Shown here piece by piece: positions 8,297 to 37,433 of a DNA stretch of 37,893 nt. A program made the position numbers and the translations under genes. Below the pieces are notes generated by a model. The model saw only the letters and a program-made list of their open reading frames with translations. It had not been told where the DNA came from and did not search any database. The stretch is from Mesomycoplasma hyorhinis ATCC 17981 (GTDB taxonomy: Bacteria; Bacillota_I; Bacilli_A; Mycoplasmatales; Metamycoplasmataceae), in contig NZ_KB911492.1 in the NCBI RefSeq assembly GCF_000383515.1, forward strand, positions 1 through 37,893, in the 5' to 3' direction. The number at the start of each line of letters is the position of its first letter. Position 1 is the first letter of the stretch.

Positions 8297-11002
8297 TTAA
8301 TTATTTGCTTCTACAGGTAAACCTTTTGTATTATTATTAATATCAAAAGCAAATTGGAGTGAGAAGGTAAATGTACTTCCGACACCTCTTAGTCGAGAAA
8401 TTGTTCAGTAAGTATCTACTTCCATCAATGGTACAATTGGAGCACTTTCTCTTAATATTTTTTCAAATACAGCAATTAATTTAAAGACTTCAATTGAGTT
8501 TCAACCCTCACTTTTTTCTTCAGGAGTAAATACTCCGTTAAAAAAGGCATTGACTCTTTCGTTGTAATCAGTAGTAGATTCTGAAAAAATTGGATTTGTG
8601 ATTACATTACCGTTTATATCTGTTGCATAAACTGGTTTTGAATCTTTGTATTGTTTAATTACTGGTTTAGTTTTTACTTTTTTGGTTTTTGGATCGATTT
8701 CCATTTTTCTTGTAATTAATTCTTTGAATTTAGATAAAAATTTACCTTCAATTTCTAAACGTTTTACTACTTCTTCTTGTTGTTGTTTAGTAAGTGACAT
8801 TCATCAATTTTGATAAGTAAATGAAGAAGAAGGATTGTAAACTAAACCATTGAATTTATTATCTTCTGGGTTAATTTCATCAGCTGTAAAAAATGCAGTT
8901 ATATAACCTTGTGCTGTAGAACCAAAAGTATCAAAGTTTTGTGTTGTAAGATCAAAATCACCACTAATTATTCTTTCTTTGTAAATATTTTCAGGCAGAG
9001 CAACTATATCAACATCAATAAATTTATTAAATGCTCGATTTATTTGATCTTGGATTCCAATTGCAATTCCGGTTTGACTAGCTCCTGAATAAATAAATTC
9101 TAGTTTTATTTGTTTTAAATTTGGATGTTTTGCTTTGAATCTATTCAAGTAAAAATTAGCTGTTTTTACATCATATGAAGGATCTTTACGTGAGACGTTT
9201 TCAAAATTATAACTTTTAGCTAAGTGATCAATAAAAGGTAGTGATTGAATTGGGAATTCTTTTTGTTTTCCATTTTCAACGTATTCAGTTTTAAAAGTTT
9301 GTCCATCAAAAAATGTTTCAAGATTAATTCCACGTTCTGTTTTTGCTTGACCAAAAGCTGTTCAAGTTGTAACTCCAAATGAAGAATCCAACTGTGATAA
9401 TTTAAGCATAGCTTCACGATTAATAGCGTAATAGATAGCTTTTCTTAAATCAGGATCTTGTAAATAACTATTTCCTCTTTTAGAATGATCTAAATTAAAT
9501 TGCAGAGCAATGGTTCCATATCCTTGGGATTTTTCCATGTATTTTCTACTTGCTAACTCAGATCAAAATCTCTTTTGAAAAACTGGTGAAATTTGTGAAA
9601 AAGCAATATAACCATCAGAGAATAAGTTAGATACTAATTCAGGTTGATCAGCAAAAAAGACTTTGACTTCATCAGGAACAGTTTTATCAGCTGAATAATA
9701 AGAAGCTCTTTTAGTTAAAAGCATATTTCCTTGTGGACCTAGTTTTAAATCTTTAATATCAAAAGGTCCATTTCAAAGAAATTTAGAAAGTTCTGATCCT
9801 AAGTCATCTCTGTTTTTTAAATCATATTCAACAAATTTTCTATTAATTGGTAAAAGTAAAGAAGAAGTTATTACTCTAGCGTATAAATCGGTTAATGACT
9901 TTGGTGCTGAATCTTCAAATTCAATTCTTAAATCATACTCATCAGCTGCAAAAGCATCATATTTTGCAGTAAGTTCTGGACCATCAAATTCTTGTAATGG
10001 ATCTAAAAATGGGTTTTTAGTTAGTGTTTTTGTAACTTGTTGGCCTTTATCATTTAAAAAGGAAATTTGTGTTGAATTAACAGAAAATGAAGGATTTAAT
10101 GCTTTATTGTCTTTTAAAATTGTTCTTATTTCTTGATTGGAGAATTCATTGAAAATTCTTCCTGTATAAAGACCTATTGATCTTGCAATAGTTTGCATTT
10201 TTTTAACTAATTCTTCATCACCTTTGTTTTCAGATTGAAAAATTGGTTGGGATTGATCCTCGACAATTTGTCCTTCTTCATTTTTTATGAATCTTCTTCT
10301 ACCAAAAGGATTTTTATAAATAATTCCAAATTGTTTTAAGTAATCATTTTGCACATCTCTCATTGCTCTGACATTTTTAATATCCATATTTAAGAGCTCA
10401 TTTAATCTAGTTGAAGCTGTGTTGGTATCTACGATGTATAAAATAGTATCAATAAAATCTTGTGCTTTTACTGGATCACCATTTGATCATTTAGAAGCAC
10501 CTTTGTTTAAATGTGATAAAAAAGTAACGTACTTATTTTCAGAGTTTTGAATTCCAATAAATGAAGGGGAATTTTGCCCAGAAGGAGCTAAAACTCCTGT
10601 GGTAACTCCAAAATTAGCAATTGGATAACTACTTCCTTGATCAGTAATAGCGTCTCTATTTTTTAAAATTTTTGAACCCACTGTTTCTGGAACACTACTT
10701 TTGTAGTTTTCAAAAGTAATAGTTGGTAATTTTAAAATATTTCCAATTGCGGTGTTAGCAGCTGGTGCTGTTTTTACTAAACCTTCAACTAATGATGGCA
10801 TTATTTTAAATGTAGCATTAGATTTTATATAGTTTAAAGTGTTAATAGGAGGTATAGAAATTCCAAAAGATGCTAATTCTTTCTTTGCATCAGAAGAGTT
10901 AAAGTTATTAGTTTCACTAGCAGGAGAACAAGCAAGAGCTACCAAAGGCGAAAAAAGCAAAGAAGATGATAGTAATAATTTAATTTTGTTTGATTTTTTC
11001 AT
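8297..11002 (-). CDS. OppA-like oligopeptide-binding lipoprotein
   Basis: This 901-aa lipoprotein is the likely extracellular substrate-binding component of the Opp importer encoded upstream. The N-terminus is a signal peptide of basic residues, a hydrophobic stretch and the lipobox VALAC with Cys25, followed by a Ser/Asn-rich linker. The body resembles the SBP_bac_5 family only weakly, but LKLEFIYSG-like strands, IDVDIVALPENIYKERIISGDFDLTTQN and YNPSSSFTYQN fit its C-terminal lobe. At 901 aa it is larger than most OppA proteins, as is usual in mycoplasmas. The start is preceded by AAGGAA, and only 14 bases separate it from the PDxFFG stop, so the genes are co-transcribed. All pieces are in one frame with TGA as Trp. 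Confidence 0.82.
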
Positions 11003-11016
11003 ATTGATTCCTTTTT

Positions 11017-14000
11017 TTAACTAAATTGACTCTTAATTGTTATGAAGTATTGATTATCTTTGGTTTTTTCTATATAAACTGGAGCTTGTGTATAAATTTT
11101 TCCATTTTCTGCTAAGTAAGTTGTATCCGCTGGTAAATGTAATAAACCTTTTAACTCATTTTTGTTTTTATCTGCAAAGAAAATTCTTAATCTTTTTTCG
11201 CCTTTAACACCTGGATTAATTAAAGCATTAGAAAAAGTAGATAAAATGGATCAGTTAGTTACTCAAGAAGCATATCCTTCATCTTTTAATGTTCATTTAG
11301 AAGATTCATCTGCTTGACGTTTAAAGTAGAAAATGTTGTTTGTGTTTTCTTTTTGTACTTTTAAGAAATATCTTTGACCAGTAGTTGGATCTTCAAAAGC
11401 TAAGTATTCAAGCTTGTCATTATCAGCTAAAGTGTTGTATCCTCAAAATGCAATTTGATCTCTTAAATGATCTCTTCAAAGTGAAGAAATTGTTTGTCTT
11501 CCTATACCTTGTGATTCTAATGTATAGTATCAAACAGCAGAAGCTCTATCTGTTACTTTGTTACCTTTGAGATCTTTAATACTTATGTTGTCATCTTTAA
11601 TACTTTCACGATTTTCATCATAAATTTGTCAATCAAGTACTTTTCTTTGGAAACGATCTTTGAAGAACCCATTATTTGAATAATTAGTAAATCCAATGTA
11701 GTTTTCTAATCTTACATATTGTTGAGTTGATCTATTTAGTCTTACTTTTGGCCCAACTCCACTATATGCATTATCTTGTGCAAAGGGTCCATAGAAAGTT
11801 TTTCAAAGGCTATCTAATGCTGAAACTGTTGGAGTAATATATTTGTTAACTTGATCAGAAGCTATTGCATCTATTTTACTGATTTCTTCATCGGTTTCTT
11901 GAGTTTGTTTTTGAATTTCTTTTTTAATATCTAAAATTTTAGCTTTTTTATCATCATCTAATCATTCGTAGTTATCTCATTTTGCATTTTTAAATGCTTC
12001 TAATTTGTTTTTTTGTTCTTGAGTTTGTTCTGATTGTCTTTTTGAAATAGCTGCTTCTATAAGTACTTGTTTATCTTGTGCTGCAGCTCTGTAAATTTTT
12101 GCTAAATCTGCATATTGTTTATTTAAATCTGATTCAAACATATGAACATAAAAGTTAGCAATGGATGGATTAGATGTAAAATCATAACCTAAACCTTTTC
12201 CTTGTGATAGAGAAACAGGATTTGTATATGATTGAAGTCATTTTTTAGAAAAACTTGGATCAACAAAGAACTCATAACCTGTATTTTTTTCAGAAAATCC
12301 ATTTAAATATGAAGGGATATTATTTAATGTAGTAGTTGAAGGAAGATAAGTTGTTTGTACTAAATCTCTAGTTAGTGATTCTGCATAATTATAAACATAA
12401 TCAGAGAAGAAATCGCTTACTCTATTTTCAAATCTTGATGAATTAAATTTATCTATTGAGCTAAAGTTCAGATCAGTTGTGAAATATCTTGTTGAATCAG
12501 CTAATTCTCTATATCATTGATTTTTAGTTGCTAAATTTGAATATGTAAATAAATCTTTGGTTCCTATTAAATATTGAAGTTCAAATAATCTAGCATTGGA
12601 GATATCAATATTTTTATCTTTTAAATAACGTGATAATAATCTATTAATTCTTGATTTTGAAGCGTCATCTTTTTCTATATTAGATTTTAAAATACTTGCA
12701 GTATCTAAATTTAAAGAATTAGTAGTATCAATTTGTGAAATGTAATCAATTCCGATTCTACTTTGGCTTGCTAATGCTTCTTGAAGTTGTAAAATAGAAG
12801 GGTCAACGTTATACATTGTATCTATTCCATTAGATGCAAGTGCTTCACCTCTGCTTAAATCTATAGTGTTAAATCCACTATAACCTACATTAGATAAGAA
12901 TAATTGATCAATATTTTTATTTGTGAATTTGTTATTTTTAATTAATAAATTAAATGAAGATTTTTCAAATTTATCCATTAATTCATTTGCAGTATTTTGC
13001 ACCATATCTTCAAGTTCTTCATCTGTTTTATCACTAAGAACTAATTTTAATTTTGCAAGTAATTCTGCTTTAGTTTTTATTGTAAAATCACCATTAAATA
13101 GAGGTTTTTTCTCTTGTTCTAAAATATAGTTGTATAAATCAAATTTAGTAAGGGCATAATCTACATCTCAAGTACGATATAGTTCTTGATTATCATCTTG
13201 AGCTATTCTAAATTTATAAACATCAATTGAAATAAAATCTATAAATGAAGCCAAAGTTGTAAAGACTGTTTGTTGTTCATTTTCTTTGTTTTTAACAAAA
13301 AAGTTTTTGTCAAAAAATTCTTCTTTATCTCAATTATCTAGATAAATTTTAGATTTATCAAGAACGGTTTTACCATTTTCTACTTTAGATTTAAAGGCAA
13401 ATTCACCTTTTTGCCCAAAGAATTTAGTAGTTATATCTTTGGTGACTTGTTTTCCTGTAGCAGTATCTTTCTTTTTCAATTGGCTTTCTAAAAAATCATA
13501 ATCAAGATTTAATAATTGTCACAATGAAGATTTAAGAATGGAAATTTCTGTTCTTGAAGTTTCTGTTCTAGGCGCAGTATAAGTAGCATCTAAAATAATT
13601 TTGGCATTTGAAGATTTTAATTTTACTAAGTAATCATATTTTGGATTTTGATAATACTCATTATCTCCTATTTTAATTACTTTTGCCATTGGCATAGAAG
13701 CACTTGTTAGTGATAGTAATTGCTGTCTTCTTCTTTCTCCTAAACTATAATATTTGAAATATTCTTTTAATAAATTAAGGAAAAATTCAACATCTTTTTT
13801 ATCTAAATCTTTATTTGTAGCATTGTTATGGATTTTTACAGAATCTAAAACTTTATCTGCAACTATGTCAAATATGCTTGATAAATCTAAGAAGTTTCTA
13901 TAAATTGATAAACTTGTATTAAGTTCACCATATTGAGTACCTTTCAATTTACTGTTAATGTTGTCTATAACTTTAGATTCAATAACTGATCTTTGTTGAC

Positions 14001-17000
14001 GTGCTATAAATAAAATTAGATTCATCAATTTGTAAAATGAAGAACTTCTTAATGAAACTAAATCACTAAGATTAGCAAATAAATCTTTTTCTTTTGCATC
14101 TGAGTAAAAACTATCTTGTTTTATTAAGTTTTTTTGTTCTGGAGTTAACTTATTAAATGCTTCATCATTATAGTAACCATATTTGAGTTTAAAAGCATTT
14201 AAATCAAATACTTTACCTTTTTCATCTTTATTTCTAAAGTCAATTTGATCACTTTGTGGATATGAATAATTAGAATTATTTCCTAATTTAGTTCTGTAAT
14301 CTTTAGTAAATGAATCAAAATTAACTTCAACATTAGTTTTTGGATTAATTCGGCCACTTAGATTATAGTAATAGTAATAAATGAGCTTTATATATTCATC
14401 TTTAACAGTTTTATTTTGTGAATTACGTACTCCTGCTATTCTTGATTCTACTACATCTTGAACTTCTTTAGTTAAATCTAAAGTTGAGTTATTGAGTTTG
14501 CTTAAATCAAGACTAAAAGTTAAATTTTTTTCTTTTGTGTCTTTAAAATCGTCATAAGAATAGAAAAATTCTCTAAGGTTACCATTTAAAAACTGGCTTA
14601 AAAAAGTTCAATATTTACTTGCATTTGCTGGATTTTTAGAATTAGCAACTCCATCGCTAGTTTTAAAGTTTCATGTGGAAATGCTTGATGATGTATCTCA
14701 TCCATTATTTTCATATTTTTTTATTAATTTGGAATTAAATGAACTTGTTAATTTATCAATTGCTTTTTTTAATTCTGAATAAGATGTTGGATCATCAAAA
14801 GTGTTTATATCAATTAAAGGTCTTCCATTTTTGTAAAATAATGTTGGTTTAAAGTTTTTAAACTTCATTATTTTTGGATCAGATTCTGAAGGATATGTTT
14901 CATATGTTCCTGCAATAATTTGACCTTTGTCATCAAATTTAATGATGTTTCCTTTACCATCTACTAAAGATCTGTTGTAAAGATTATTAATATCACTTCC
15001 TAAAATATAACTATCCGGCGCTTTACTTAATTCTTCTAAATTACTGTTATCACCAAAGAGATTATCTTTTATTTCATTAAATAATTTTTGTTTTTGTAAA
15101 AAACTTTCTAATTTTTGATTTAACTGTGCTAATTTGTCTTGAGCAGCTTTGTTTGTATTTTGATCTTTTGATGCTTTTAATTGTTCATTTTGTTGAGCTA
15201 TTTGTGCTTGTAAATCACTTACTTCAGTGTTTATTGCTAAAAGTAAAACATCTACAATGGATTTGAATTGAAGTAATACTCAATCTTGAGGGAAAAATCC
15301 TTCAGGAATTTTTGTTTTACCTGTTCCAGAAGGTAAAGTTTTATATTGTTGAGATAATAATTCAATATTTTTTTCTAAAGATTCGATTTGTTCTTGAGTA
15401 ACATTTTCAAATCCTGCTTGTTTATTTTTGGCTTTTTCTAATAAAGATTTAAGTTGTTGAACTCCATATTTATTAAGATCATCTAAAGTTTCAATTTTAA
15501 CTTGATCAAAGATTTGCTCCACACTAAGAGATTTAACATCAAGATGTCGCTCTAATAAAGTAAGTAATTTTTTAAAATTTTCAGCATTATTTACTAGTGA
15601 TTGATAAGTAATAAGTTTGGTTTGTAAAGCTAATTTAGATAATTGTTCTTGATTATTTGGTTGATTATTTGCTTGGTTTTGTTGATTAGAATTTTGTTGT
15701 TTTTGTTCTGCTTCTAGTTTTTTTAACTCAGGTTGAAACTCTTGTACAAGTTCATCAATTAATGAATTAAATGAAGAAAGATTTGATTTGTAAAACACTG
15801 CAAGTGCTCTTTTTACTTTTGCACGATAAATGGATTTAGCTTGATCTTCAGTAAAATTATTATCCAATTTTGCGCTTGCTACAATGTTAAATTCTTTTTC
15901 AAAAATTTGTTTTAAATCATCAAAAGAAATATGAAAGGTTTTATCTTGATTTTTTTTGTTTGCTTGAGATAATACTTTATCAAGAAAATCACTTACAAAA
16001 GTAGCAAATTTTTCTTTATCTAATTTTTCTTTAGAAACAGGTGGAGTTAGTTCTAAATCATGCAAGCTAACTTGGGCATTTTGTGCAAAAGAGTCTTTAT
16101 TAGCAATACGTGAAAGAACTTCATTACCTAATTTAAAGTACTCGGAATTTCCTTCGATTTTAGGACTAATTGTTCCTGAATCAAAATCAAATGCGTTTAA
16201 TAAATATAAATCATATAATTTAAGATTTCTTAAATCAGCAGCTGTTTTTAAATTTTCAAAAGATTGTAAGTATCTTCTTGCTTTGTTATCGATTAAATCT
16301 TCAGTGGGTTCTCCTGGACGAGATCCAAAAATATCTTTTTCTGTTTCTCAACGTTGTGGAATGTCACCTTTTGCTTTGTTAAATGTATAGTTAGAATACA
16401 AACCATTAGCTGATGGTTCATATGTTGCATTTGCACTTCTTATTTTAAGACCAGAAGATCTTGCATCTAGGTAAAGTTGTAAGATATCTTTGTTATATAA
16501 ACCTTCAGCTGCAATTCCACCACTTGTTAAAGCAGCAGCTTGAATTGCTTTGGATTTTTCAGAAATATTTTGGGCATATTGAAGTGTTTGGTGATGACCA
16601 TATTCGTGTTGTCCAACGTATCTTAAATAGTTTATTCCGGTAGTTTTAAACTTATCTGAACTAGCTTTTAGTAACGAAATGAAAGAAATACGATCTGTTG
16701 AATAAAATCCAGTATATTTTCCATCCGCTATTGAATAAGTTATTTCACCTGTTGTTGGATTAATTGATTTTTCTAAATGTGTGCCGTCAATTTCAGTTGC
16801 AACGTATGGATCATTTTCTAAAACTGTATCAATTAAACCATCGTAATAATCAAGAAATAGTGTGTAAGTTTTTGTGGGTTTTAAATCAATAATTTCATCA
16901 TTTTCTTTAATTATTCTTGGAGTTACTCTATCAAAGTAATTAACTGATCATTTAAAAGTTCTAAATTCTTCTTCAGCTTGTTTTAAATCTGGATTGTTGC

Positions 17001-19281
17001 TTGCAAGATTAATTTCTTTTACAATTGTAAATTCAGCATCTGATTTAGCTTTAGCTTCTGGTTTAGCATTTAAAGTATTAACCAAATTTAAAGCAGCATC
17101 CACAAAAGAAGCAAATGAAGAAATATTAGTTTCTAAAGTTTGTTCAGTAACAGATGTAACACCATCATCTGTTGAATCTAAATAGGTGTTATTAAGTTCT
17201 GCTTCATCTAATTGTTTATTTCAAAGCTTTTCTAATTGTAAAAGTAAAGCGTCGATATTTTGTGAATTTGTAAGATTATGTTTGGTGTAAAACTCTTTTA
17301 ATTTAGTTAAATGTTTTTGTAAAAATGAAACTAAACTTGGATCAGTTATTGATAAAGTTTGAGTTTTAGCATCAAATGAAAGAGCATTTAATAAATTAGG
17401 AAGTTTTGAATTTGGAGTTTTTTGTAAATCAGTAAAAGTTTTTAAAACTGGTGTTAATTTAGTTGAAAATGTTGTATCTTTTGCAAATTGTTCTAAATAT
17501 GTTTTATATTTATCTTCATCTGTTAGTTTAATTTCTAAGTGATCTTTGTCTTTTTTAACAACATCTAAAATTGAAACTTTTTTTAATTTTTTAAAATCAA
17601 AATCTTCACCATAATTATCTTCAGCGTATTCTAAACTTTGGTGAAATGTAGTTTTTTTACCATCTTCGTAAAGGTAAATTGTATTTCCTTTTGTAGATTG
17701 GAAATTATAAAAATTTCTAAATCCGTTAGTTGCTAATTTTTCTAATTGCGGTTGTGTTTCTTTAATAAATTCAAGAAGCATTAATGAATTTAATTCATCT
17801 TTATTAGTTCCATTTGCTAAACGATTAATTCTAAAATTGTAACTAAATTTTAGTTGTTTTTGATTTTGTGAATCTCTTTCTTTTTTAGTGTCAAAATCTG
17901 GATTTGAGATTACAAAATCAACAGTTTCTAAATATTGTTCAGGTACATCATCTGGATATAAACGATATTGTTCTCAATTAGCATCTCTGTGTTTGTTGAT
18001 TAATTTTTCAATTGTATATTCTTTATCTACTTGTGTTGTATCAAGAACAACTTCAGGATTATTGGCCAAAGATATATTGTGATTTTTTGCAAAAATGTAT
18101 AAAGCTGTTGTAAATTTAGCAACTAATTGCTGATGTTTTGCACTTGGTTCGTCTTTATCACTGAAAGCATAAAAATAAGTATCTTCTGGTTTTAATTTAA
18201 GAGCTTCAAGTTTTTTTAACTCTGCATCGTAATCAACATTAAATGAAATGTCTTTGTTTAATCCAGTTGCTTTTTTAGTAGGAGTTATCACTTCAACAGA
18301 ACCATCAGCTCTGGTATTTTTTATAGAAACTAAATCTGGATCATTTAAACCATTTTCAAACACAGGTTGTTGTGCTTTAATTGTTTGTTGTTGACTTTGT
18401 TGTGTTGCATTTTGTTTTGCTTTTTCCAATGTTGCTTTTAAAGCATTATAAAGACTATATCTGTGGATTTTTTTACCTAATAATAAATCAAGACCAACAA
18501 CACCACCAGCTGTGAATTTATCTGGATAGTTAGAAATTACTAATCTTTGCGGAATGGTTTTGATATATTCTTGCAATTGTTCTTTTGTAAAAGCAAGTGA
18601 ATTAAATTGATATGTTAAACTATCAGGTCCATTTCCTCTTCCTGCGTAATTAGAAGCTAAAGGAAGAGAACCAAAGAATGCATCAGGGTAAAAAGTAATA
18701 TTGGTTTCTTCTTTTCTTTTTCCTTGATGTTGCCCCAAAGTTATTGCATTTCCATTTACTATAACTCCTTTTTTAAGGGTAAATGAAGAAAGTGAAAGAG
18801 TTTCTGGTCCTCAGGAAACATTTTTAATAAATCATTTTGCATAATCCACAAATTCTTGAGGACTTAATGCTTCAAAATATTCATTAATAAATGTCATCAA
18901 CCCTATTTTTACTCTAAAGATAGGAGTCTGGCGATTGTGAGTTTTTAAAAATCATAAACGAAAATCTTTAACTGACATAGTCATTTTACCATTTACTCTT
19001 TGTTGTAAAATAACCATTGAATTTTCATTTTGAGGATTATTTGGATCTAAGTTAGAATCGAATTTTGCTACAACTTGTCCTACAGAGTCAAGAAAATCTG
19101 CAGAACTTACTTTAGTTAGGTTTGTTACTGCATTTGAATCACTTTGTTCTAATTGCAAGTGATAAACACCTAATTCATTATGCTCTCCGTATAATTTAAT
19201 TCCACCAATAACAGCTCCTGATGCAGCTACAACTGAAGTCGTTGCTATTAAAAACTTAGCTCCTGCTGTTAATTTTTTCAT
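11017..19281 (-). CDS. Giant PDxFFG-type surface protein with HEYGH motif
   Basis: A single open frame of 2754 aa was checked through every interval between the longer TGA-free segments: there is no TAA or TAG. The N-terminus has two lysines then a hydrophobic stretch (residues 9-28, IATTSVVAASGAVIGG core) and should be a signal anchor. PDAFFG lies at residues 199-204, matching the mycoplasma protein group named after PDxFFG. At residues 892-896 is HEYGH within YVGQHEYGHHQT, an HExxH zinc-metallopeptidase signature. A Gln/Asn-rich linker lies near residue 1190-1210, and the C-terminal half is rich in predicted helices. A strong RBS (AAGGAG) precedes ATG, and the gene overlaps the end of oppF by 13 bases. 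The position inside the opp operon suggests a partner in peptide capture, perhaps a surface protease. That function is inferred. Confidence 0.85.
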
Positions 19282-29011: not shown

Positions 29012-29049
29012 AGATCCCCTTTTTTTTAGAAAAATAGAAAAGGGGATCT
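29012..29049. terminator. Bidirectional terminator between tkt and lanKC-like gene
   Basis: AGATCCCCTTTT (29012-29023) pairs with AAAAGGGGATCT (29038-29049); this is one of the most GC-rich stretches in the local sequence. The TAG stop of the minus-strand lanKC-like gene (29048-29050) overlaps the stem, so it serves both genes. Confidence 0.88.
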
Positions 29050-30675
29050 ATCATTCTTTCAACATTTTTTTATTTTGTGAATTTTTATTTTTATTAAAAT
29101 CATTCAAAAGATAAAAACAATAAAAAATTAAACTTGATATTTTTAATTTATAGATATTTTTATAATGAACTTTTTTGTTTTCTGTATTTTCAAACTCTAA
29201 ATCATTAATAACAGAAAAAATCAATTTATGTTTTCAACTTTCGAATTTAAACTTAATTTTTGGATTTTTAGCTAAAATATTTTGCACTTTATTGATTATA
29301 TAATTTTCTGAAAACATTAAAAATGCTTCTTTTTTATAGCATTTTTGTTTAATTTTTTCTAATTTTTGTACAAAATTAACTTTTTCTGGATTTTTGTATA
29401 AAAGTAAATTAAGTGATTGAAAAATATAAGATTTTAAACCAAAAAACTTTGTAAATTTTCAAAACAACAACAAATCCAAAGAAAATAAATATTTATCTTT
29501 TTTAAAGTAAAAATGATTAAAAAAATGTTGTAATAGTACAATTGCTAACTTAAAATAATCTTTTTGAAAATGAGTTAATTTATTTGATTTATCAATTTGG
29601 AATAAATCTGTATCTAAAATAACATTATTTTTTAAATCAAATTTCTTTTTAAAATCTTCATTAGTGAAAAAAGAAAAATCATAATCTATAAAGTGAAATT
29701 TATTCTTGTTTGTTATAATGAAATTTCCTAAATTAATATCCTTTAAAATAATGTTATTTTTATGATGCAAATCAATTGTTTTTACCAAATTTATAATTAA
29801 ATTAAACAAAAATTTAGAATAATGTTCGTGATTAGTTAATGAATAAATTAGATTAGAATTTAATACATTTCCTAAATCTCTACCATTTATAAACTCTTTT
29901 ACAGTATAAAAAAGTTGTTTTCAAAAAATGATTCTATAAAAATAGATGGATTAATAATTTTTCAAAACTTTTGTTCACGTTTTCTTAAACTCACCAAAGC
30001 AACTTTTGAATCAAAATAAGTATAAATGTGAGTTTGTTTAACTGTTAGTGTTAGTAATTTATTTTCATTTTGTTTAGCACCTAAAAAAATAAATCCAGAA
30101 GTATTTTGATATATGTTATAGGGTAATCTATATTGTGAAAGTTTAGGTGAATCTTTTGGTTTTTCTGCAAAAACATCCTTTACAAATGAAGGTAAATAAA
30201 AATATGATTTACTTCTATCTGGTTCTTTTTTTCTGAGTAATGGGATTAACAAAATATGGTCTTTTGCTATGATTTGTTCCAAATCTATAAAAAATAATAG
30301 AATTTTTGTACTGCTTGTCTACTGAAATATTTAAGCCTTTATATTTTTTTAATAGTTGATACAAATTTTCGATATGTAGTTTAAAATCTTCTTCATTTTT
30401 TGGATAAATTGTAATTAATTTACCGTACATTTGCAAATCTAAACTTTTTGAAGAATAAATCTTGGCTAATTTATGGTTTTTAAATGCTTAAATTCTAAAA
30501 AATTATTTACACAATATGTGTAAATAATTTTTATAACTTTGTAGTAATCCCTTATTCTGGGAGCTATATGAATTTTTCAACCTTGAAATAGTAGCGGGTA
30601 ATTATGAAAAATTAAAAACTTAAAATTTTCATTTTTTGATACATTATAATTAACATTTGATGAAGAGACAACCAT
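29048..30675 (-). pseudogene. LanKC-like lanthipeptide synthetase (lyase + kinase), three frameshifts
   Basis: The conceptual product of about 540 aa matches the N-terminal part of class III/IV lanthipeptide synthetases. In order: QGWKIHIAP (residues 31-39), YGKLITIYP, KNSIIFYRFG and PDRSKSYFYLPSFV of the phosphothreonine/serine lyase region, then a kinase domain with TVKQ (ATP Lys), LRKREQKFW (helix C Glu), LKDINLGNFII (catalytic Asp and Asn) and HFIDYDFS (metal Asp). About 150 residues follow, without a recognisable LanC cyclase; full LanKC proteins are roughly 800-900 aa. The frame changes three times: at T5 30477-30481, T7 30226-30232 and A6 29908-29913 (plus-strand bases). Apart from these there is no stop other than the final TAG. 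The ATG lies 16 bases after a small Cys-peptide gene. It could be decayed, phase-off, frameshift-expressed or mis-sequenced. Confidence 0.75.
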
Positions 30676-30681
30676 AATTTA

Positions 30682-30687
30682 ATTATA
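30682..30687 (-). promoter_or_regulatory. Possible internal -10 box before the lanKC-like gene
   Basis: TATAAT on the minus strand lies 6 bases before the ATG at 30675 in the short gap after the Cys-peptide gene. There is no Shine-Dalgarno sequence for the synthetase gene, so a leaderless transcript from here is possible beside read-through from the peptide gene. Confidence 0.35.
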
Positions 30688-30691
30688 ATAA

Positions 30692-30862
30692 TTATTTTTT
30701 ATAAATAATTATTGTGCATTGATTTGTGTCAATTTTTTCAAGTTCATTTTGTTTTGCTGCTAAATTCATTTCTTTATAACTAGTGTTTAATTTATTAAAA
30801 TCTAAAGAATCCAAATTATTTAGTAAATTTGCGTTGAGTAAAATAGTTGATAAATTGTTCAT
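30692..30862 (-). CDS. Candidate RiPP precursor peptide (56 aa, one Cys)
   Basis: This 56-aa peptide directly precedes the LanKC-like gene on the same strand, with 16 bases between. It starts MNNLSTILL and contains an amphipathic segment LLNNLDSLDFNKL (residues 13-25), resembling the helical Leu-rich leaders of class III/IV lanthipeptides. The only Cys (Cys49) is near the end in KIDTNQCTIIIYKK, with Thr46 three residues before and Thr50 just after. A Thr46-Cys49 thioether ring would be sterically ordinary. No double-Gly or other obvious protease site is present. A GAAAG-type RBS and TATAAT lie upstream. It is too small to prove by sequence alone, but the position and composition favour a synthetase substrate. 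Confidence 0.65.
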   Translation of the reverse strand: MNNLSTILLNANLLNNLDSLDFNKLNTSYKEMNLAAKQNELEKIDTNQCTIIIYKK

Positions 30863-33993: not shown

Positions 33994-34025
33994 AAAAAAA
34001 CTTACTAAAAATAGTAAGTTTTTAT
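33994..34025. terminator. Bidirectional terminator
   Basis: AAAAACTTACT pairs with AGTAAGTTTTT (34013-34023) across a short loop, followed by T-rich sequence. The minus-strand ABC gene ends inside it (TAA at 34022-34024). Confidence 0.85.
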
Positions 34026-35650
34026 TTATCTAAATAAATTATATAATCAAATGCTTGTTCTCTTTTGTTGTCATTATGATGTGAAATATAAATTAATGTA
34101 AGGTCTTGATCATTTAATAATAAATTTAGAGCAATTTCCAAATTTTCTTTATCAATGTTAGATAATCCTTCATCTATTATTAACACATCTTTTTTAAAAT
34201 ATAAATTTCTTGCTAACACTATTCTTTGCATTTGACCAGTTGAGACATCATTATCATCTTCTTGTCCTAAGATTTTATTTTTATCTATTGTTTGCAAATT
34301 TAATTTTTCAATTAGGTTATTTAGCTTGTTTTTATCAGAATTTTCTTCAAATAAAACAATATTATTTTCTATATTTGCTTCAAGTAAAAGCGAGTTATTT
34401 GCTAGATAGTTAAAGTGTTTGTTTATTCATTTAAAATCAATCTCTTTAACTTCATATTTAGCATTTAGTAAAACATTTCCATCATAGTTTTTCTCAAGAC
34501 CTAAAAGAATTCTGGCAAGCGTAAACTTACCTGAACCATTTGAACCTTTTATAATGTATTTTTTAGCTGGATATATAATTAAATTTTTATTGTTATACAA
34601 TGTTTTATCCTTTAATTTTAAAGAGAGATTTTTAATTAAAATGCTTGAAAATACTTCATTTTCTAAGTTAAATGCACTTACTGTAAGTGTTAAATTAAAT
34701 GGTGCAATATTTTGTGTATCTTGAATTTCTTTTTTGGCCTTTTTTACTTGAAGAAATTTTAAAATATCTTCAATTGTTTCATTTAGATGATCAAAAAAGT
34801 TATCTAACAAAGAACCAACAAATGCAATAATTGAAACTGATTTAATCAACTCAAATACATCATTTTTATGAACTAAACCAAAATAAACTATTATCACACC
34901 ACTTACAAAAAGTTTAAAAACTAAATTTAAATTTTCTGAAATTAAAGAAAAAAACTTAGAAGTTTTTAAATAATTATTGTAAACATTTAAATTTGCATCT
35001 AGTTTTTTTGCAAATAATTTATTAAGTTTTTCTTTTTTATTTAGAGTATACAACGCTGGTAAATAAGAAATGATACCTGTTATATTTTCATTAAATTTAT
35101 TTCAAGATTCTGTTTTTGCAATAAATGTTTTTTTTAATTTTGGCTTTATAAATAAAGAAAAATTAAAAAATAATACTAACAAAGCTACTATAGTAACTCC
35201 AAGAATTCACTTGGTATAAAACGCAAAAATTAAAATTGCAATTATATATAAAAGATTTTTCAAAATTTCAATTAATGCTAAATAATATTTTTCAATTCTT
35301 TCTCCAATGTTGTTTTTAATTTGTGAATAATAATAACCTTCAGAATTTTTGTTATATTCACTTAAATTAACCTTATCAAAAACCTTAATTGTTTTAGAAA
35401 CAAGTTTGAGTTTTAAAATATTTATAAAACCTGTAAAAACAGCATTATGATAACCTGTAAAAACAGCAGAAACTATAAAAGATAGAATTAGAATAAGTGA
35501 AGTAATAACAAGTTTTTGATAGTTATGTTCTTCTAGAAATGTAAACAAATAGTAAGGAGCAACTGTAATAACAAAAGATGTAATTAAATATTGTAAAACA
35601 TAAAAAATATTTCAAATATTAAATAAAAATAATTTTGATTTTGTACTCAT
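34022..35650 (-). CDS. ABC half-transporter 2 (membrane + ATPase), altered Walker A
   Basis: This 542-aa protein has an N-terminal membrane domain of about six spans (ALYTLN and long helices to residue ~300) and a C-terminal nucleotide-binding domain. Walker A is GSNGSGKFTL (residues 369-378): the Lys is kept, but the next Ser/Thr, which binds Mg, is Phe. The signature is VSTGQMQRIVLARN instead of LSGGQ, Walker B is VLIIDEGLSNID with the catalytic Glu, and the switch His is in YISHH. Domain order is that of exporters of the lantibiotic/bacteriocin or lipid type, without an N-terminal peptidase. It starts 12 bases after the preceding half-transporter with AGAAGGA as RBS, so both form one operon and probably a heterodimer. 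Confidence 0.87.
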
Positions 35651-35662
35651 TTTTCCTTCTTT

Positions 35663-37249
35663 TTATAGCCTAATTACCTCACCAAATTGCTCTAATATTT
35701 GTTCATTAAAATGATGACTAATAGCAATAATTGTTTTATCTTGTTGATTTAAAATGTTAGATCAAATAAGATTACTAAACTCTTTTTCTATATTATCTAG
35801 CGCTTCGTCTAAACACCAAATATCAAAGTTTCCATATTTTAATCTAGCTAAAATTATTCTTTGTTTTTCTCCTTCAGATAAAGAATCAGAAGTTACTTCA
35901 GTATCAAGTGATAATTTTTTAATTTTAAATTCATCTATTAGTGATTCCACTCTTTCTAGGTCTGGATTGTCATCTCACATAACTATGTTATTCAATAAAA
36001 TATCATTAAAAATTGTGTTTTGATTGTCAATTAATCCAATGTTTTTTAATGTATTTTTAGGATTTAATTCTTTTGTATCAACTTCATTATTTATCAAAAT
36101 TGTACCTTCGTAATTTGTTTCTAAATTAGCTATTAACTTTAAAAGTGTTGATTCTCCACTTCCTGAAGCTCCAACTATTGCATATTTTTTATTTTGCATA
36201 ATTTCAAGATTTAAATTTTGAAAAATGAAGTCATTTTCATTACTTTTATATGATAAATTATTTAATTTTATTGACTTAATTTTATCTATGTTTTCAACTT
36301 TAAAACTTGGTTGTTCGTGTGTTTCTAATATTTTTTTCAATGTTGGACCATATGTCATTAAAGGAAAAATTGAATTAAATAAAAGAGTAAAAGAAAAACT
36401 AATAATTATTAAATAAGAAAGCAAAAGAATAAAGCTTGATTTTCCTATGAAATTATTATAAATTAGTAAAGCAATTTCAACTATACTAATTCCAACAAAT
36501 AAAACTGAAATAAAATTTCCAAATGAATTTGCTCAATCTGTTTTTAGATTAAATTTAAATTTATTTGCATATATATTTTCAGTTTTTTTAAATATTAAAT
36601 TATTAAAAATATTAACTTTATTAAAGAAGTAAAATATAGAAAATAATGAAAAAGTTTTAACCTGTTTTTGAGCATATTCTTCATATTTTTGCATTAATAT
36701 TTGGAATTTATATTGAAATCTTGGAATAATTATTATAAAAAAGGCAAGAATTAAAAACTGTGAAAAAATTATTGTTAAAAACATTATTCAAGATCATTGA
36801 CTTAAAACAAATATAAAAACTAATGGTATTGTAAACGAAGAAATAAATTTAAATAAATAATCATGGAAAATCTCCAAAAGAAGCATTGTTGAATCTAAGT
36901 ATTCATTAAACAATGCAACGGTTTTATTTCTTTGTTTGCTAATTTGAGAAAAACTCTGATTAGATAAATTATCTATTATTTTTTCTTGAAGTAATTTATA
37001 TGTTTTTCTAGTAACAGATATCTTAAAAGCAGTTAAAATCCACTGAATTATTATAGATAAAACAAGTGAAAATAAACAAATTAATAATCAAATTAAAAAC
37101 TCATCAAATTTAATTTCATTTAAAAAATAATCAACAATATATTTGTATAAATATAAATTTAATGATAAAAATGCTACAAAGATATTTTGTAGCACAAAGA
37201 TAAAAATATTTTTGGTTTTATCAAATGATAAAATTTTTAAAATGCTCAT
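35663..37249 (-). CDS. ABC half-transporter 1 (membrane + ATPase), Walker A Lys replaced
   Basis: This 528-aa exporter-type subunit has membrane spans in the first 270 residues, for example FLTIIFSQFLILAFFIIII, and an ATPase domain. Walker A reads GASGSGESTL (residues 360-369): the invariant Lys is Glu366 (codon GAA), which should abolish ordinary ATP binding. The signature is LSEGEKQRIILARL, Walker B IWCLDEALDNIE and the switch His lies in AISHH. The frame is open throughout with TGA as Trp, so the gene is intact apart from this substitution. It is preceded by a 57-codon ORF whose stop is 10 bases before this ATG, and it leads into the second half-transporter. Confidence 0.87.
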
Positions 37250-37259
37250 AAATATCTTT

Positions 37260-37433
37260 CTATAAAATTTTCATTATATATTTTTGTACAAAAAATGTTA
37301 AAGTGATTTTTAAAATTTTTTGTTTTATCTTATCAATATTATCTTTGAGAACAATATTTTCCAAATTATCTACTTTATCTAAAAGTGAAATAAAAAAATT
37401 AGATAATTTATTATCATATAATGAAATTTTCAT
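37260..37433 (-). CDS. 57-aa peptide gene heading the ABC operon
   Basis: This 57-aa ORF starts MKISLYDNKLSNFF and has one of the best ribosome binding sites in the window (AAGGAG, 9 bases before ATG). It encodes a Lys/Ile/Leu-rich, probably helical peptide with the central NLENIVLKDNIDKIKQKI and no Cys, no Trp and no signal peptide. The TAG is 10 bases before the ABC start. A role as substrate, immunity or leader peptide of the transporter pair is possible; nothing in the sequence decides between these. It is intact and probably translated. Confidence 0.55.
   Translation of the reverse strand: MKISLYDNKLSNFFISLLDKVDNLENIVLKDNIDKIKQKILKITLTFFVQKYIMKIL

What the first reader, a model, noticed from the sequence alone, without database searches (positions are those of the whole stretch)
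29048..30862. Candidate lanthipeptide-like locus in a mycoplasma: Cys peptide plus LanKC-like lyase-kinase
A 56-codon ORF for a peptide with one Cys near its C-terminus sits 16 bases upstream of a gene whose conceptual product carries the lyase motifs GWKIH, YGKLITIYP, FYRFG and PDRSKSYFYLP and all kinase residues (Lys, Glu, Asp, Asn, Asp) of class III/IV lanthipeptide synthetases. The LanC cyclase domain is absent, so the predicted chemistry would be phosphorylation and elimination giving Dha/Dhb, with any ring closed spontaneously or by another enzyme. I know of no described mycoplasma lanthipeptide. The seen part is the motif order; the substrate link is inferred from position.
Basis: partly seen in the sequence, partly recalled or inferred. 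Interest (0 to 1): 0.92.

Follow-up and report, generated by a model that had tools for sequence, protein, structure and literature searches.

The report
Decayed mycoplasma lanthipeptide gene cluster
The window holds a broken copy of a gene system that, in related mycoplasmas where it is intact, looks able to make small ring-shaped (thioether-bridged) peptides called lanthipeptides, a kind of natural product I found no report of from these minimal bacteria.

Summary
The minus-strand pieces at 29048-30675 are a class III-like lanthipeptide synthetase (LanKC): two pieces hit Pfam RamC_N (E 4e-12, 6e-9) and NCBIfam LanKC, and six lyase residues shown to matter in ThurKC are retained. In this genome the copy is dead: three frame breaks, a missing 3' end, no other LanKC or LanC in the genome, and altered Walker A motifs in the two linked exporter genes (34022-37249). 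RamC_N matches occur in 25 of 320 genomes of the order; about 17 encode a long protein (596-763 aa), and close pairs show dN/dS 0.17-0.26. Near them lie a small ORF ending in Thr-x-x-Cys and a pair of ABC genes: 12 of 25 loci have such an ORF directly upstream, against 3 of 188 control genes. Intact proteins keep a shortened LanC-like tail, so the missing cyclase here is truncation. Best reading: the remnant of a mycoplasma class III-like lanthipeptide system, kinase and lyase making Dhb/Dha and Cys closing small T-x-x-C rings. Chemistry, product and role are inferred. No report of a mycoplasma lanthipeptide was found in the open-access library. New variant of a known kind.

The parts
30692..30862 (-). 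56-aa candidate lanthipeptide precursor, Thr-Asn-Gln-Cys near the C terminus
   Evidence: 16 bases upstream of the synthetase remnant. Best match among 15 candidate precursors of other loci is G057 (43% over 44 aa); 2 of 2000 shuffles score as high against any of the 15. It did not rank in a leave-one-out profile test, so it is likely, not certain.
30466..30675 (-). LanKC remnant, piece 1: lyase domain start (GWKIH, EFKHLK)
   Evidence: RamC_N E 5.9e-9; LanKC E 7.8e-10; ThurKC 8sao E 2e-4
30215..30436 (-). LanKC remnant, piece 2: lyase domain (YGKLITIYP, DKQYKNS, YRFG), other frame
   Evidence: RamC_N E 4e-12; LanKC E 6.6e-12; ThurKC 8sao E 7.5e-5
29899..30282 (-). LanKC remnant, piece 3: lyase-kinase linker and kinase N-lobe (Lys, Glu), other frame
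   Evidence: No family hit alone; homologous to the intact G013 LanKC
29048..29911 (-). LanKC remnant, piece 4: kinase catalytic loop and following helical part; ends where the LanC-like tail should begin
   Evidence: 84% identity over 286 aa to G013 LanKC residues 273-558; dN/dS 0.15 on 253 codons
35663..37249 (-). ABC exporter half-gene 1; Walker A reads GASGSGEST (Lys to Glu)
   Evidence: 72% identical to a G013 ABC gene that follows a T-x-x-C peptide; G013 reads GESGTGKST
34022..35650 (-). ABC exporter half-gene 2; Walker A reads GSNGSGKFT (Ser to Phe)
   Evidence: 71% identical to the G013 partner, which reads GSNGSGKST
37260..37433 (-). Second precursor-like peptide, 57 aa, without Cys in its reading frame
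   Evidence: Homologous over 46 aa (0 of 2000 shuffles as high) to the G013 peptide that ends RFTILCVIIQQ

Best explanation
The locus is the decayed remnant of a class III-like lanthipeptide system that is intact in other Mycoplasmatales. In the intact systems a short precursor is encoded just before, or near, a LanKC of about 600-760 aa. The kinase domain phosphorylates Thr/Ser of the C-terminal core, the N-terminal lyase removes phosphate to give Dhb/Dha, and the Cys three residues on adds to it, closing one or two small (methyl)lanthionine rings. A reduced LanC-like tail without evident metal ligands may assist. Two ABC half-transporters export the product, and leader cleavage is by an unknown protease. 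Shown: homology, conserved lyase residues, gene neighbourhood, recurrent T-x-x-C tails, selection on intact copies, decay in the window. Inferred: the chemistry, ring pattern, export and any biological role.
For: Family hits of the pieces. Intact relatives: RamC_N to 7e-41, NF038151 LanKC to 4e-79, class III scoring above class IV; profile A1 against class III crystal structures 8sao/8sap/8sam E about 4e-85. Six ThurKC lyase residues (K65, H67, K94, K117, D152, R163; roles in PMC10604976) correspond, to columns invariant in the alignment of 14 mycoplasma proteins, and the window pieces keep them. T-x-x-C-tailed ORF directly upstream in 12 of 25 loci against 3 of 188 control genes, one of the 3 being itself a candidate precursor; further candidates in G234, G283, G057, G101 and G013. 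ABC genes near the LanKC in 21 of 25 loci by signature. dN/dS 0.17-0.26 in close pairs. Only one LanKC gene and no LanC-like gene in the own genome.
Against: No product or enzyme activity is known. Precursor sequences are very divergent: a leave-one-out profile ranked only 4 of 16 first, and not the window's. G003, G133/G134, G152, G037 and G136 have no convincing precursor. PF05147 fails or is below cut-off in 4 of 6 intact proteins scanned, so enzymatic cyclisation is uncertain. The NCBIfam equivalog cut-off (575 bits) is not reached by any (best 267). ABC pairs of this type also occur in genomes without LanKC. The control count was not corrected for relatedness among loci, and the motif rule was chosen after seeing the first examples.
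Confidence: 0.85

Rival explanations
1. The enzyme only dehydrates (phosphorylates and eliminates); thioether rings close spontaneously or not at all, and the product is a Dhb/Dha peptide.
For: The LanC-like tail is short and divergent; no PF05147 match at E<=0.05 in G002, G003 or G076; no invariant Cys or His in that part.
Against: G157 and G234 match PF05147 (5e-13, 5e-7); GxxG positions of the tail are invariant; Cys follows Thr at a fixed spacing in nearly all peptides; class III cyclases lack zinc ligands anyway (PMC10604976).
Confidence: 0.2
2. The frame breaks are sequencing or assembly errors and the window locus works.
For: Draft genome of 24 contigs; low dN/dS of the last piece (0.15).
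Against: Three breaks in one 1.6-kb gene while the flanking long ORFs are open; the 3' end is missing; missense changes in both Walker A motifs; the second peptide has no Cys in frame; no LanC-like match anywhere in the genome.
Confidence: 0.07
3. The protein is a kinase/lyase recruited to another task (modifying cell proteins), and the small ORFs are chance.
For: SpvC/OspF-type lyases act on proteins (PMC10604976); several loci lack a clear peptide.
Against: Recurrent T-x-x-C peptides and adjacent exporters; best match over the lyase-kinase unit is to LanKC, not to stand-alone kinases.
Confidence: 0.06

Closest known systems
Class III lanthipeptide synthetases LanKC (ThurKC, PDB 8sao/8sap/8sam)
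   Same: Domain order lyase-kinase; K65, H67, K94, K117, D152 and R163 equivalents invariant; no evident zinc ligands in the tail; precursor next to the gene
   Different: 596-763 aa against about 875; cyclase-like tail shortened and mostly below the PF05147 cut-off; cores carry T-x-x-C rather than the S-x2-S-x3-C motif described for class III
Class IV lanthipeptide synthetases LanL
   Same: Same three-domain order
   Different: Lower scores in all six relatives scanned; no conserved Cys/His candidates for zinc ligands
Firmicutes class III clusters with unlinked proteases (PMC8960859)
   Same: No leader protease recognised beside the synthetase
   Different: Different peptides and core motif; paired half-transporters in the mycoplasma loci

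Membership tests
Class III lanthipeptide synthetase (LanKC) | N-terminal phospho-Ser/Thr lyase domain of RamC type with catalytic residues | tested here: met
   PF25816 over cut-off in window pieces and relatives; six residues invariant, mapped to ThurKC with PMC10604976
Class III lanthipeptide synthetase (LanKC) | Central Ser/Thr kinase domain with Lys, Glu, Asp, Asn, Asp | tested here: met
   Invariant or nearly invariant in 14 relatives; Pkinase hits in most relatives scanned; in the window spread over two broken pieces
Class III lanthipeptide synthetase (LanKC) | C-terminal LanC-like cyclase domain without zinc ligands | tested here: inconclusive
   Window: absent by truncation. Relatives: short tail, PF05147 5e-13 to no match
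Class III lanthipeptide synthetase (LanKC) | NCBIfam equivalog NF038151 above its cut-off of 575 bits | tested here: not met
   Intact relatives score 152-267 bits over the lyase-kinase part; hence 'class III-like', not filed as an equivalog
Lanthipeptide biosynthetic gene cluster | Adjacent precursor peptide with Ser/Thr and Cys in the C-terminal core | tested here: met
   12 of 25 loci within 70 nt against 3 of 188 controls; present in the window
Lanthipeptide biosynthetic gene cluster | Linked transporter | tested here: met
   ABC genes near 21 of 25 loci; in the window about 3 kb away with altered Walker A
Lanthipeptide | Thioether (methyl)lanthionine in the product | not testable with these tools
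   Needs mass spectrometry

The most novel reading that the evidence does not exclude
Mycoplasmatales carry a widespread but patchy, repeatedly lost family of class III-like lanthipeptide systems with a reduced cyclase tail and T-x-x-C mini-ring products, used by wall-less host-restricted bacteria against competitors or as signals: a natural-product pathway in near-minimal genomes.
Probability: 0.6. Interest if true: 0.78.

Novelty: new variant of a known kind. Interest (0 to 1): 0.62.

Why it matters
Mycoplasmas have small genomes, and one published survey found no biosynthetic clusters in its two Mycoplasmatota genomes (PMC11278768). A lanthipeptide synthetase in 25 of 320 genomes of the order, under purifying selection where intact, would mean that wall-less, host-bound bacteria make modified peptides. 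It also suggests why they could be overlooked: the mining pipeline I read requires a PF05147 match (PMC7268733), which most of the mycoplasma proteins scanned miss, and precursors are small ORFs that are often not annotated. The reduced cyclase tail gives a natural test of how little cyclase a class III enzyme needs.

Tried and rejected
Single-protein scan of genome contigs with the window's last piece found no relative. The alignment was too diverse for the search for related loci. Leave-one-out profile of the precursors was mostly too weak to rank them. The A2 precursor search of the family mostly recovers its own training members; the one new hit (G093) had no LanKC context. A tree of the lyase-kinase part has weak deep branches, an outgroup that failed to extract, and does not settle transfer against vertical descent. 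No structure prediction was run: the stated input rule does not list loci from the genome search, and an unaligned 253-aa piece would give a poor model. The broken gene was searched only in pieces.

Full report
What is there. On the minus strand, with TGA read as Trp, the window carries a 56-codon ORF (30862-30692) followed after 16 bases by pieces of one gene in changing frames down to 29048. Taken one by one and not joined, the first two pieces match the lyase domain of class III lanthipeptide synthetases (Pfam RamC_N E 5.9e-9 and 4e-12; NCBIfam LanKC 7.8e-10 and 6.6e-12) and, more weakly, the class III synthetase structure 8sao (E 2e-4 and 7.5e-5). The last piece is weak against family models but 84% identical to the kinase part of an intact homologue in the same genus, G013.

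State of the gene. The frame changes three times. Homology to G013 stops at 29054, at residue 558 of 712, right beside the hairpin-like sequence that follows the transketolase gene, so the C-terminal part is gone. The own genome has no other RamC_N place outside this gene and no LanC-like match. Long ORFs around it are open, which speaks against poor sequence as the cause.

The rest of the cluster. Some 3 kb away on the same strand lie two ABC half-transporter genes (37249-35663, 35650-34022). They are 71-73% identical to a G013 pair that is preceded there by a peptide ending RFTILCVIIQQ. The window has the homologue of that peptide (37433-37260), but without a Cys in its frame. Both window transporters have an altered Walker A motif (GASGSGEST, GSNGSGKFT), where the G013 copies read GKST. 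These are missense changes that frame errors in reads would not explain. The picture is recent decay of the whole system: the last LanKC piece still shows dN/dS 0.15 against G013, with a lower dS (0.51) than four neighbouring genes (0.87-1.06), which may hint at a separate, more recent history of this gene.

Relatives. RamC_N matches occur in 25 of 320 genomes of the order, in 9 of 50 genera. About 17 of the 25 loci studied encode a long protein of 596-763 aa, one of them with a doubtful start; the others are broken or run off a contig. Across 14 of these proteins the invariant positions include Lys, His, Lys, Lys, Asp and Arg equivalent to ThurKC K65, H67, K94, K117, D152 and R163, residues whose replacement reduced or abolished dehydration in ThurKC (PMC10604976). 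The kinase Lys, Glu, Asp, Asn and Asp are also kept. Class III models score above class IV in all six relatives scanned. The C-terminal tail is short, with invariant GxxG-type positions but PF05147 matches ranging from 5e-13 to none. Close pairs show dN/dS 0.17-0.26, so the intact copies are maintained.

Precursors. Directly upstream of the synthetase, or upstream of the linked transporters, sit peptides of about 34-68 aa whose ends read, for example, ITIICKITTEKCSK (G092), ITIVCGFTWKCTIKQD (G076), ITLICITWKCQEN (G117), ITFFCTTIVCK (G234) and TTKCTIITLIC (G057). A small ORF with [ST]-x-x-C in its last 16 residues lies within 70 nt upstream in 12 of 25 loci, against 3 of 188 other genes in the same regions, and one of those 3 is preceded by the G013 peptide named above. 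The rule was set after seeing the first examples, and related loci were not corrected for. The window peptide ends DTNQCTIIIYKK and aligns best with the G057 precursor (2 of 2000 shuffles as high), but a leave-one-out profile did not pick it out; I take it as a likely precursor.

How it would work. By the established chemistry of LanKC enzymes, the kinase phosphorylates Thr/Ser in the core, the lyase eliminates phosphate to Dhb/Dha, and a Cys adds to close a thioether; here the spacing implies four-residue rings. Whether the reduced tail helps close them is open. Export by the ABC pair fits its position near 21 of 25 loci, although similar pairs also occur in genomes without LanKC. No protease dedicated to the leader was recognised. 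All of this is inference from sequence.

Known or not. Searches of the open-access library for lanthipeptide and related terms with Mycoplasma, Tenericutes or Mollicutes gave no report of a mycoplasma lanthipeptide. A 100,000-genome survey required a PF05147 match and does not mention the group in its main text; a lung microbiome survey counted zero clusters in two Mycoplasmatota genomes. Subscription papers were not searchable. I rate it a new variant of a known kind: it works like class III, differs in length, tail and core motif, and fails the NCBIfam equivalog cut-off. The window's own copy is a pseudogene, which lowers its direct interest; the family it reveals is the finding.

Noticed in passing
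L036:2298-2712 (G013): A second, broken partial LanKC 5' end in inverted orientation, and as with the intact copy, type I restriction specificity (hsdS-like) sequence lies beside it; suggests DNA rearrangement at this locus.
   Followed up: partly
L030, L043, L049, L050, L051, L032, L054: LanKC copies in several other species are also broken, some by what looks like a single frame change (L050); repeated loss or phase variation.
   Followed up: no
L040, L041: What look like mobile-element ORFs (near-identical 404-aa and 424-aa ORFs in both species) sit within or beside the ABC genes next to LanKC in G101 and G098.
   Followed up: no
window 11017-19281: Very long minus-strand ORF of 2754 aa followed by a 901-aa ORF at 8297-11002; not identified.
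   Followed up: no
L078 (G000:C18), L075, L076, L077: Further pairs of the same kind of ABC half-transporters in genomes with and without LanKC, without a T-x-x-C peptide beside them.
   Followed up: partly
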